Assembly: GCA_032164295.1 (NCBI GenBank)
Contig: JAJHTX010000002.1
Location: 4,216,001 to 4,280,000 of the forward strand
Direction: 5' to 3'
Length of the DNA stretch: 64,000 nt
Source: Inonotus obliquus
Taxonomy: Eukaryota; Basidiomycota; Agaricomycetes; Hymenochaetales; Hymenochaetaceae
Made by a program: the position numbers and the translations under genes
Notes under the pieces: generated by a model
Told to the model about the DNA's origin: nothing
The model's database searches: none
The model's input: only the letters and a program-made list of their open reading frames with translations
Shown: positions 42,616-46,541 of the stretch, piece after piece
Layout: each line of letters starts with the position of its first letter
How positions within the stretch are numbered: the first letter of the stretch is position 1

Positions 42616-43407
42616 ATGCGCTCCTGGAAGACTTCAGCTTCAGAGAGTGTATTCTCTGTTCACTTACCTAGTCTCGATACTCAGCAGTCTACCGCGATCG
42701 CACGCGGTGCTAAGGAGATCCAACAGCGCAACCGGAGGCCATGCGGTAGGTGCTCCCGCATGCAGAAGAAGGTAATTATTACTTCCTGAAATTTCATGTA
42801 ATATTCATGGCTATTCGTTATCGTCATTTAGTGTGATATCGCTCCGCCGTATTCGCCAACGAGATGCGGGTCATGCACAAAGGCGAACATACCCTCCTGT
42901 CCACCATACAAAGCACGTCGCTCTTGCGATTCGAAGCGCGGCAGCCGTACGCGTACCAGCCGCAAAGAACAGACTCCCTCGATTAGTTCTAGACCAGCAG
43001 CTCCCCAGGTGCGCGTGCTATGACTAGCCATGCCTAGCGAAATTGACCGAAACTGAGGCCATCCTTTTGTTTGATAGAGTCATTATTTAGAAGTTGATGC
43101 CGCGACAGTTTTTCCGCGGCCGGTCCATCAAAGCGAAGCTAAGGAGGTCGAGAATCCGAGTCGAATTAGCGAGGCCAGCGGTCTAGGCTTTGGATCCACA
43201 GACGTATCTATTGCCCCGCAACCTGCACCGCTCATGCAGAACTCCGTCTCCTTTGACTTGGATCAAATGACTCTCGGTGGGGGGATAGACGCTATCTTTT
43301 CATTGTTTTCGTCTGGCGAATACTTGGCTGAGTCCGAGGATCTCACTAATGCACCTGGCCTCGCTTTCCCAGTTACTTTTGCTCCCGCCTTCTTGCCTTC
43401 CCTGTAA
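42616..43407 (+). CDS. Small Zn(II)2Cys6-like protein, paralogue A
   Basis: Three exons, 42616-42771, 42832-43008 and 43078-43407, encode 220 residues. Residues 46-76 form C-X2-C-X6-C-X10-C-X2-C-X7-C, starting CGRCSRMQKKC, which fits the spacing of the fungal binuclear zinc cluster (Gal4 type). It is followed by an Arg/Lys/Ser-rich stretch. The C-terminal half has acidic and hydrophobic segments (VSFDLDQMTLGGGIDAIFSL) that could act as an activation region. No fungal transcription-factor middle homology domain is present, so this is far shorter than typical Zn2Cys6 regulators. The phase-0 intron 1 falls directly before the third Cys codon, as in paralogue B. Function is inferred as DNA binding, not shown. 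Confidence 0.7.
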
Positions 43408-43960
43408 TAAATTACGAGACCTAGACTCACCTAAATTCCTCCCTGATGAATTGCGAACCTTTATGTATTTCCTCACCGAGCCACTCCGTTCGAATTCCCT
43501 ATGGGAAAACGAAAGGAGGTTTGATTAGATACCGGTCCAAGAGGCATTTAGTTCCGATGGATATACATACTGCGGCATCTGTGTTAAAGCTCCGTTATGA
43601 CGTGATCCCGAGGCACCGAAGAGATAATCCATCCGTGATGGATATGAAGAGAAAGTCTGGACCCATGAGTCTAAGCAAAGTCTGAGTGCTTACTATTGGT
43701 TGTAAATCGTTAGGCTAGAACGTCGGTCTAGACCTGTAAAGTTCCCGTGCGTTATGGCATGGGCGCCGTTTTCTCGTGATTCAATGAACGGAATGAGGAC
43801 ACACGCGTTCGCGAGCGATGTTTTAATATCGATCTTGACATCCTTCCTCCGAATCTTGTTGGTACTGGACTGGGAGTCGTGGTAATGCTGAGGCTATGCC
43901 GAGGCCGGGGCCGGGGCTCGTAATCAAGATTACGCTCGCCGAAGGCCCTGACCTTGCTCC

Positions 43961-43984
43961 CTGTTATAGAAGCTGTTATAGAAG
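43961..43984. repeat. 12-bp tandem repeat, two copies
   Basis: The word CTGTTATAGAAG is directly repeated at 43961 and 43973. Short, no coding role apparent. Confidence 0.8.
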
Positions 43985-45546
43985 CTGATTTGTAGCTAGT
44001 CGCAACGGAGACGCTTCGAGGCCAGGAGGAATCACATTATGCGGTGAGAATCAGGCTCACAACGCGGTAGGTTTTGAATTGCATTCCGGTGCGTACTGAT
44101 AGCAAGCCGGCATTGCAAGAGTATTGATTTCCGTTAGGCTCATTCCCATGGTCTTCAACACTAGTACCATCTTCCATTTTACAGACCTTCGTCAGTTCTT
44201 ATTGAGGACAAGATGGTTTAATTCATACTGTGAGTAATATCCAATTCTTCGTAACAGCAGATGTTTAGAGCTTTCACTTGCAATCTTCTGAGTGTCTTGG
44301 AGTTCAAGCTTAGGGTATCCTATGGACTCCTCTCGGCGTTTCTCGACACACTCGGTTCCCCGCCGGCCTTCCTCAGTTTCCTCGGAGGTCGCATGCTGTT
44401 CAATTTGAAGGAGGCGGGTACGAAAGGAGGTATTTGCGGATTGAGGCTCAAACGTGACTAGTTTTCAGTTTTCAGTATGCGATGCTTGATGTGCTACGTA
44501 AAGGCCACCCGGTTATGAAGTGGTGTATGATGACTTGCTCAATGAACTTGAACCCACCTTGCTGTCCGTTTGAGGGGCGGGCAGGTGGCATCATACTGGT
44601 CCTAGTGTTTATGGCACGTACGTACAGGTTCACGGCGGTATCTGGAGGCACGACCCAGGCCGCACGGGGCGAAGGATCAAATCAGCGTGCTATACCTGTA
44701 TGAACTGTATTTTGGCCTGTTAATCCACGCAGATTGGCTCCCTTTCTTTCTTGCGACACTTGCAGCTTCGAGCGTGAGCGATAGCTGTGCTATAGTCTTC
44801 TGTCTGGCCTCCGCACAGCACTCGCGATTGAAGTGAAGTCGGTACTCGGCGGCGCTCGCATATACTGCATTCCTGGCAACATTTCTAGTATTCACCCCAA
44901 GGACAAGGACGGCCATAGGAATACCCAGTATACGGATATGGAAGACTTGAGCAATGTGGCTTGAGTACTAGGGCTCCGCACCGGATCGGATTTCCCGGAT
45001 ATGATACTCCATAGCCTGAGGGTCTTTGGAGAGCAACATCTGGGCGCGTTGCGCCATCTCCTTGCCATATCAGGTAACTGAACCCTGGAGGATGATTAAG
45101 TAATCATGTGCTACTGATGGCGGTGCAGCATGAAATGTCCGCGCCTTATCGTACGTACCAACAAAATACTCTGCGGAGCCCTAGAGCCGCTAGTGGCCCA
45201 GTTAACAAACCAAGTTATTTGTAGATTCTTCTTGGGATCGAAGTTCCCGAGTTGAAGTGCCTATCTACCCCCAAGTAATGCCATACTAAGACACATTATA
45301 GAAGCGATTGTGCAAGCGTTCGATTCGAGATATCCTCTTTAGACAATAGCGAACCGTGGACATCATAATGCAAATAACGTTACAGAATCTAGATCTATCA
45401 GATGTCAGCTGCGGTTGAGAAATAGGTGATGAGAGCTGTTGCCTCAAAGTACGTGAATTAGCCTACTAGCGGCTCCTGCATCCTCACAAAGGAAAGATAA
45501 AATATTTATAGATCCTCATACGAATGATGGTACTAGACCATAACTT

Positions 45547-45554
45547 TATATAAA
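45547..45554 (+). promoter_or_regulatory. TATA box (TATATAAA)
   Basis: Strong TATA element 50 nt before ATG 45597, matching the layout of the paralogue at 42616. Confidence 0.65.
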
Positions 45555-45596
45555 GGCCACGACCACGGCAAAAGCAACATACCATGACAGCCAACT

Positions 45597-46541
45597 ATGT
45601 CCTTCAACGTCAGCCAAAACACTCGCGGTTGGCCAGTGACACAAAGTGCAGCTCAGACTGGTGCATTAAGCGCAGGTAGCTTGAGCATGCCCACACTTAC
45701 CAACACTCCTGTCATCGCACACCGTTCCACACGAAACATGCTCGCATGTAGTAATTGTGCTGCTTTGCATAAGAAAGTAGGTTATGACATCAAGACGCTC
45801 GTTGTCTGAGTGGAAAACTCACGCTACACACAGTGCAATATGGAATACCCCTACTCAATCTCCAAGTGCGAGCTATGCAACCTATTGGGGCTCCAGTGTC
45901 ATCCGCGAACATCGCAAAGGCGTCGAGGCAGAAGGACTCACAGACAACCTGGTGGAGTTACACAACATGACCCGGCGGGAGACTTCAGCTTTCCTGTGAG
46001 CCTTGTAATTTCAGTCCCCGCCGCGGAATGAGTCGTTCTGATATGATTAATCCCACCGCTTTTGTTCCAGGCGCCTCAACCCTCCACATCATCAGCAATT
46101 GATGTAAACGTCACTCAACTTGAACATATCCAAAACTTTCCGGCACAAGTCGTTAATTGCCTGTCTACAGCTGAAGCCAATAGCCGAACACAGAGTCAGT
46201 ACTGTTAGGGTATCACAAAAGATCTCCGACTCACCTTCATCAATTGCTCAACATGCAGTTAATTTTATCGCTGGAAGCTTCTATCCGGAGCTTGATCCAC
46301 AGCCTACATGGCAGATGCCCGGCGCTACTTTCCACCCCAACAGCATCTACGTCAATCATCTACCCTTCATCTACAACGACAATACACTGGGTTAGTGCAT
46401 TTCTGTAGACCTCAGAGTTATTAAATTCTTACACGTGTTTTCAAAGCGCAATATGCGTTCAATCCAGATGCTAGAGGCGGTTTGCTCAATAATAAGCTCG
46501 GTCAAAGTCCGCCACGAGGCTCGCCGCCCGCCTCCCAATAG
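45597..46541 (+). CDS. Small Zn(II)2Cys6-like protein, paralogue B
   Basis: Model of five exons: 45597-45776, 45834-45995, 46071-46198, 46278-46390 and 46447-46541, giving 225 residues. Residues 51-80 form C-X2-C-X6-C-X10-C-X2-C-X6-C, starting CSNCAALHKKC. Shared with paralogue A are KKC before the intron, PYS between Cys3 and Cys4, and a basic stretch after Cys6 (here RRRGRRTHRQ). Intron 1 is phase 0 directly before the Cys3 codon, exactly as in A. The C-terminal half differs from A: Asn/Pro/Gln-rich with MPGATFHPNSIYVNHLPF. The third intron (donor GTACTG, 46199-46277) is the least certain; without it the protein would end at 46208. An out-of-frame ATG lies just upstream at 45583. Confidence 0.65.

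What the first reader, a model, noticed from the sequence alone, without database searches (positions are those of the whole stretch)
42616..46541. Pair of small paralogues with a binuclear zinc-cluster-like motif and a conserved intron inside it
Genes at 42616-43407 and 45597-46541 each encode about 220 residues with C-X2-C-X6-C-X10-C-X2-C-X6/7-C. Both have KKC at Cys3 and PYS between Cys3 and Cys4, a basic stretch after Cys6, a phase-0 intron immediately before the Cys3 codon, and a TATA box about 50 nt before the ATG. The C-terminal halves are unlike each other. The spacing fits the Gal4-type Zn(II)2Cys6 cluster, but both proteins lack the usual middle homology domain. They look like a lineage-restricted family of miniature regulators that duplicated locally and then diverged.
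Basis: partly seen in the sequence, partly recalled or inferred. Interest (0 to 1): 0.8.

Follow-up and report, generated by a model that had tools for sequence, protein, structure and literature searches.

The report
Two small fungal zinc-cluster regulators
A fungus related to Sanghuangporus carries two neighbouring genes for very small Gal4-like zinc-cluster proteins; one is conserved in related fungi, both lack a lysine that usually reads DNA, and they look like an ordinary but divergent little branch of a well-known regulator class.

Summary
Gene A (42616-43407, 3 exons, 220 aa) and gene B (45597-46541, modelled with 5 exons, about 230 aa) each encode C-X2-C-X6-C-X10-C-X2-C-X6/7-C, split by a phase-0 intron exactly before Cys3. 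A six-Cys cluster split there occurs twice in the window and in none of 60 simulated sequences. A is real: full-length relatives, 50-53% identical, with all six cysteines and the same C-terminus, exist in Sanghuangporus baumii and S. vaninii. No relative of B was found, but B passes the Pfam Zn_clus cut-off (22.3 against 21 bits); A does not. An intron inside the cluster is common in this genome's Zn2Cys6 genes (16 of 26 hits), but none resolved has it at this position. Lack of the middle homology domain is common too (14 of 26). What sets A and B apart is the reading helix: the Gal4 Lys18 position is Gln in A and both relatives and His in B, against K/R in 25 of 25 other clusters here. Best reading: miniature, divergent Zn2Cys6-type DNA-binding regulators. 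Local duplication is likely, not shown.

The parts
42616..43407 (+). Gene A: small Zn2Cys6-type protein, 220 aa, 3 exons
   Evidence: full-length relatives P0001 and P0002
42555..42560 (+). TATA-like box of gene A, 61 nt before the ATG
   Evidence: motif scan; not evidence of function
42616..42771 (+). A exon 1: conserved N-terminus MRSWKxSASESxFSVxLPxLD and Cys1, Cys2 up to KK
42772..42831 (+). A intron 1, 60 nt, phase 0, directly before the Cys3 codon
42832..43008 (+). A exon 2: Cys3 to Cys6 and basic stretch
43009..43077 (+). A intron 2, 69 nt; junction PQ^SHY matches P0001 (SQ-SQY), P0002 is shorter here
43078..43407 (+). A exon 3: acidic/aromatic C-terminal part ending TFAPAFLPSL, conserved to the stop
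45597..46541 (+). Gene B: small Zn2Cys6 protein, about 230 aa, 5 exons (exons 3-5 uncertain)
45547..45552 (+). TATA-like box of gene B, 50 nt before the ATG
   Evidence: motif scan; not evidence of function
45597..45776 (+). B exon 1: N-terminus, Cys1, Cys2 up to KK
45777..45833 (+). B intron 1, 57 nt, phase 0, directly before the Cys3 codon
45834..45995 (+). B exon 2: Cys3 to Cys6 and QRRRGRR basic stretch
46071..46541 (+). B exons 3-5 (46071-46194, 46259-46390, 46447-46541), chosen by hand among many open models

Best explanation
A and B are small, divergent proteins of the Gal4-type Zn(II)2Cys6 kind and most likely act as sequence-specific DNA-binding regulators. The six cysteines would hold two zinc ions; the Cys2-Cys3 helix and the basic stretch after Cys6 would contact DNA. 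Because the Gal4 Lys18 position is Gln or His and the basic residues sit next to Cys3 (KK^C or KR^C), base readout should differ from the usual CGG pairs. With no middle homology domain they may bind as monomers, a mode reported for AlcR and considered for fission-yeast Pho7, which has Asn at the Lys18 position. In A the last 75 residues (8 acidic, 0 basic, 8 aromatic; similar in both relatives) would serve as an activation tail; B, as modelled, lacks that charge bias and may compete with A or act on other sites. Shown: A's gene structure and conservation, the cysteine pattern and first intron of both genes, the helix residues. Inferred: zinc binding, DNA binding, activation, and the A-B relation by local duplication.
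For: All six cysteines kept in A, P0001, P0002 and B. B over the PF00172 cut-off. The only two PDB sequences listed for the A-family profile, not significant (E = 3 and 7.6), are the Leu3 Zn2Cys6 domain, with Cys1-Cys5 aligned and Cys6 one residue off. All four proteins fit the PROSITE PS00463 pattern as I recall it. A is constrained at its N-terminus, cluster, CPPYKARR and last residues. The A/B intron position is shared by none of the 25 other Zn_clus hits resolved. The core of A and B shares non-Cys residues beyond Cys-fixed shuffles (BLOSUM score reached in 6, identity in 346 of 100000). Both depart from the genome's 25 other clusters in the same way: no K/R at C2+1 and C2+4, K at C2+5. 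Pho7 precedent: PMC5559640 (passages).
Against: A, P0001 and P0002 have no Pfam match. B's first 114 residues list only two unrelated PDB chains (E 0.35 and 0.91), no zinc cluster. Against a profile of this genome's canonical clusters A, B, P0001, P0002 score 11.9-17.3 bits, below all 25 leave-one-out scores (19.7-47.9) and, except for A, not above the best of 50 Cys-fixed shuffles each. The base-reading lysine is missing. The predicted structure of P0001 is of no use (mean pLDDT 37). No expression, zinc or DNA-binding data. A's closest cluster by score is L034, not B.
Confidence: 0.6

Rival explanations
1. A and B are not sister copies. They are two independently diverged Zn2Cys6 genes that lie side by side by chance, and the shared intron and X10 loop are convergent.
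For: A's cluster scores higher against L034 (77) than against B (66), and 66 is near the median of canonical pairs (60). Introns in the Cys2-Cys3 stretch are frequent and at several positions in this genome. Little similarity between A and B outside the cluster. P0001 finds A but not B in the own genome.
Against: Same private intron position and phase, same X10 spacing (none of 22 canonical clusters has 10), same helix departures at C2+1, C2+4, C2+5, same strand, 2.2 kb apart, similar size.
Confidence: 0.25
2. The cluster is a zinc-binding scaffold that no longer reads DNA: a small cofactor, decoy or dominant-negative partner of full-size Zn2Cys6 factors.
For: No K/R at C2+1 and C2+4 in either gene or in the two relatives of A; no middle homology domain match; very small size.
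Against: Both keep a basic stretch after Cys6 (10 and 7 K/R in 40 residues) and K-K or K-R next to Cys3; Pho7 lacks the same lysine and still binds DNA (PMC5559640, passages).
Confidence: 0.15
3. B is a decaying or unexpressed copy; only A is a working gene.
For: None of 66 candidates scored as a relative of B (a 199-aa form of B); codon bias of B exon 2 is worst of the three forward frames in the predicted one; an out-of-frame upstream ATG at 45584 overlaps its start.
Against: Six cysteines, open models through five exons, a TATA-like box and a Pfam hit over the cut-off.
Confidence: 0.15

Closest known systems
Zn(II)2Cys6 (Gal4-type) binuclear cluster, Pfam PF00172
   Same: Six cysteines with permitted spacing; B passes the Pfam cut-off; intron inside the cluster as in 16 of 26 such hits of this genome
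   Different: A is below Pfam detection; X10 between Cys3 and Cys4; no K/R at C2+1 and C2+4; K at C2+5
CeGAL family (Zn2C6 plus middle homology domain; PMC10141177, abstract and passages)
   Same: Zn2C6-type cluster
   Different: No PF04082 match in the window; A ends at a stop shared with its relatives, so it is not a truncated gene model
Fission-yeast Pho7 and Aspergillus AlcR (PMC5559640, passages)
   Same: Pho7 also lacks the Gal4 Lys18 equivalent (Asn299); monomeric binding is cited there for AlcR and considered for Pho7
   Different: No sequence comparison was made; A and B are far smaller (sizes of Pho7 and AlcR recalled)
Hypothetical proteins ACEPAG_4837 (Sanghuangporus baumii, P0001) and ACEPAH_5245 (S. 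vaninii, P0002)
   Same: Full-length relatives of A, 50 and 53% identical in the alignment, six Cys, same termini
   Different: No function named; no relative of B found

Membership tests
Zn(II)2Cys6 / PF00172 | C-X2-C-X6-C-X5-12-C-X2-C-X6-8-C | tested here: met
   A, B, P0001, P0002: 4 of 4
Zn(II)2Cys6 / PF00172 | PROSITE PS00463 signature (pattern recalled, from no call) | tested here: met
   4 of 4 match the recalled pattern
Zn(II)2Cys6 / PF00172 | Pfam curated cut-off, gene B | tested here: met
   22.3 bits against 21
Zn(II)2Cys6 / PF00172 | Pfam curated cut-off, gene A and its relatives | tested here: not met
   0 families for A, P0001, P0002 at E up to 10; so A is not filed as a PF00172 member, only as working like one
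Zn(II)2Cys6 / PF00172 | Basic residue at the Gal4 Lys18 position (C2+4, numbering of Gal4 cysteines recalled); usual, not strictly defining (Pho7 has Asn) | tested here: not met
   Q, Q, Q, H against K/R in 25 of 25 clusters of this genome; one of 26 hits (L038) was left out, and the 25 were found with the PF00172 profile, which favours the usual residues
Zn(II)2Cys6 / PF00172 | Binds two Zn(II) and CGG-containing DNA | not testable with these tools
   needs protein
Zn(II)2Cys6 / PF00172 | Coiled-coil dimerisation helix after the cluster (typical members) | tested here: inconclusive
   AlphaFold model of P0001 has mean pLDDT 37 and no helix of 4 or more residues; too poor to judge
CeGAL (Zn2C6 + middle homology domain) | PF04082 domain downstream | tested here: not met
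   0 of the 37 PF04082 matches listed for the genome lie in the window
Local duplicate pair | A and B closer to each other than to other clusters | tested here: inconclusive
   A-B 66, A-L034 77, canonical median 60, against a shared private intron position

The most novel reading that the evidence does not exclude
A and B are the visible part of a Hymenochaetaceae-specific subclass of Zn2Cys6 proteins in which the CGG-reading lysine was traded for Gln/His with lysines placed against Cys3, giving miniature monomeric regulators that read a different DNA sequence from the rest of the class.
Probability: 0.25. Interest if true: 0.5.

Novelty: new member of a known kind. Interest (0 to 1): 0.27.

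Why it matters
Pfam misses A and its relatives altogether, so small Zn2Cys6-like regulators of such fungi may be undercounted (inference). A conserved 220-residue protein with one cluster and a short acidic tail would also be a handy minimal case for testing how a cluster without the Lys18 equivalent reads DNA. Otherwise it is an ordinary addition to a very large fungal regulator class.

Tried and rejected
Search for relatives of B: none with E up to 1 among 66 candidates. This used a 199-residue B without its last exon. NCBIfam: nothing for A or B.

Region search with A's cluster alone: nothing, but it did not return even P0001 and P0002, so the negative says nothing about wider spread. The claim that A is lineage-restricted rests on one word-based search.

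Own-genome protein searches with A, B, their exon-2 pieces and P0001: A or B themselves, plus a weak match at C9:1128724 (E = 0.134) that on reading is no zinc cluster. P0001 finds A at 37-62% identity per exon, which shows how far the search reaches; it does not find B.

PDB search with B's first 114 residues: two unrelated chains.

Structure: AlphaFold with two sequences gave pLDDT 37, so no fold search was made.

Further copies of A or B in the window: none credible; every secondary tblastn match is at E = 0.076 or higher.

CGG/CCG triplets upstream as possible target sites: 11 (A) and 5 (B) per 400 nt against 9.7 in the window; no signal.

Paper searches on Zn2Cys6 introns, Sanghuangporus Zn2Cys6 genes and lineage-specific Zn2Cys6 families listed nothing on this pair (listings). 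led to A. nidulans RhaR, whose cluster is split by an intron between the third and fourth Cys codons (PMC4245848, passages), so a split cluster is not new.

Full report
What is there. The window lies at C2:4216001-4280000 of a 36.07-Mb, 30-contig genome. Gene A runs from 42616 to 43407 with introns 42772-42831 and 43009-43077; of 6 open models the 220-residue one is kept because it fits P0001. Gene B runs from 45597 to 46541. Its first intron (45777-45833) follows from the cysteine pattern; the later ones I chose by hand among many open models (one search printed 25 of 185, without the AAG acceptor I use for the last exon), giving 5 exons and about 230 residues, so B's C-terminal half is uncertain. 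In both genes exon 2 starts exactly at the Cys3 codon. The six-cysteine pattern is C-X2-C-X6-C-X10-C-X2-C-X7-C in A and the same with X6 at the end in B.

More than chance. A script that looks for a cluster with X5-12 between Cys3 and Cys4, split by a GT-AG gap exactly before Cys3, finds 2 places in both strands of the window, A and B, and in 60 Markov-1 sequences of 128 kb it finds 3 second halves and 0 spliced clusters. The pattern was written after the finding was known.

Gene A is conserved. A search of 5.8 billion proteins gave two relatives among 311 candidates at E up to 10: hypothetical proteins of Sanghuangporus baumii (221 aa, E 1.1e-55) and S. vaninii (214 aa, E 4.9e-51), both over the whole length. 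The alignment (50 and 53% identity) keeps MRSWKxSASESxFSVxLPxLD at the start, the six cysteines with PPYS and CPPYKARR, and a last stretch ending PAFLPSL. It runs without a break over the first splice junction and, in P0001, over the second; P0002 is shorter there. So the gene model is sound and the small size is not a truncation. Sanghuangporus is in Hymenochaetaceae; that the window's host is too is inferred from this one protein. B gave no relative.

Is it a Zn2Cys6 cluster? B passes the Pfam PF00172 cut-off (22.3 against 21 bits); A, P0001 and P0002 match no Pfam family. The A-family profile lists just two PDB sequences, both the Leu3 DNA-binding domain, with Cys1 to Cys5 aligned and Cys6 one residue off, at E = 3 and 7.6, which alone is not significant. 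B's first 114 residues list two unrelated chains (E 0.35 and 0.91). Against a profile of 25 other clusters of this genome A, B, P0001, P0002 score 17.3, 14.2, 14.0, 11.9 bits; the leave-one-out scores of the 25 are 19.7-47.9; shuffles of the four with cysteines fixed have medians of 3.3-6.9 and maxima of 14.7-20.5 (50 each). They are outliers of the class, recognised mainly by their cysteines.

The helix. In Gal4, Lys17 and Lys18 between the second and third cysteines make the base contacts (PMC4245848, passages; Lys18 also in PMC5559640, passages). With Gal4's cysteine numbering recalled, Lys18 is C2+4. There 25 of 25 clusters of this genome have K or R; A, P0001, P0002 have Q and B has H. 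At C2+1 25 of 25 have R or K; A and relatives have S, B has A. At C2+5 none of 25 has K; all four have K. One of the 26 hits (L038) was left out, and the set was found with the PF00172 profile, so it leans to the usual residues. Pho7 has Asn at the Lys18 position and still binds DNA, so the difference does not rule DNA binding out.

The intron. Of 26 PF00172 hits in the genome (A and B, being split, are not among them), 9 have Cys1-Cys3 in one exon, 10 have an intron in or after the Cys2 codon (at 14, 16 or 19 nt before Cys3), 2 directly before Cys2, 1 directly after Cys1, 3 have two introns around a 13-nt microexon with the second intron 3 nt before Cys3, and 1 was not resolved. All these are predictions from splice signals. 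None of the 25 resolved has it 0 nt before Cys3. So an intron there is a habit of the class, and the exact position ties A to B. For a chance match of one of B's 4 introns to A's first in about 690 nt I would expect under 1%, more if the stretch is an intron hot spot (rough estimate, no call).

Are they sisters? For: private intron position and phase, X10 loop (22 other clusters have 5-9 or 11), same three helix departures, adjacency, size; non-Cys similarity of the core reached by 6 of 100000 Cys-fixed shuffles on BLOSUM score and 346 on identity. Against: A's cluster scores 77 with L034 and 66 with B, and 66 is near the median of 60 for canonical pairs. I take local duplication as likely, not shown.

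Missing middle homology domain. None of the 37 PF04082 matches listed for the genome lies in the window, but 14 of the 26 Zn_clus hits also have none downstream on the same strand within 3.5 kb, so this is common here at this search's sensitivity. The CeGAL authors take the Zn2C6-MHD pair as the canonical signature and show that most MHD-only entries are annotation errors (PMC10141177, abstract and passages); they say nothing on Zn2C6-only proteins in what I saw. A with its conserved stop is not a truncated model. Small Zn2Cys6 proteins are known: 104-1395 aa in Tolypocladium guangdongense (PMC6471507, passages).

Mechanism. Most likely both are DNA-binding regulators with changed base readout, perhaps monomeric. 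A's last 75 residues hold 8 acidic, 0 basic and 8 aromatic residues (P0001 9, 1, 10; P0002 9, 1, 11), the make-up of an acidic activation tail; B's, in the model used, hold 4, 3 and 10. That step is inference.

Verdict. A well-seen pair of genes, of a known kind, divergent enough that A escapes Pfam. Interest is modest.

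Noticed in passing
L037, L039, L040 (G000 C3:2402527-, C2:76319+, C2:80422-): Three Zn2Cys6 genes with a downstream PF04082 match have a predicted 13-nt microexon inside the Cys2-Cys3 stretch (part of an Arg codon plus R-R-K-M/T), between introns of 48-60 and 51-59 nt (L037 uses a GC donor, L039 also allows a 9-nt reading). A 20-nt microexon in the cluster of Trichoderma Xlr2 acts as a switch (PMC11121469, abstract and passages), so these deserve an RNA-seq check.
   Followed up: partly
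window 45584-45679: An out-of-frame upstream ATG of gene B opens a 31-residue frame overlapping B's start; it lies about 37 nt after the start of the TATA-like box, so it may be only a few bases from the transcript's end or outside it (distance rule recalled).
   Followed up: no
L034 (G000 C5:1368758+): The canonical cluster most similar to A's among the 22 compared (score 77, against 66 for A-B); its intron sits directly before Cys2, as in L024.
   Followed up: no
L018, L031, L041 (G000 C7:1583493, C6:610330, C7:31999): Three clusters with the intron inside the Cys2 codon share R-R-G-P-D soon after the cluster and have no PF04082 match downstream within 3.5 kb: perhaps a separate small group.
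   Followed up: no
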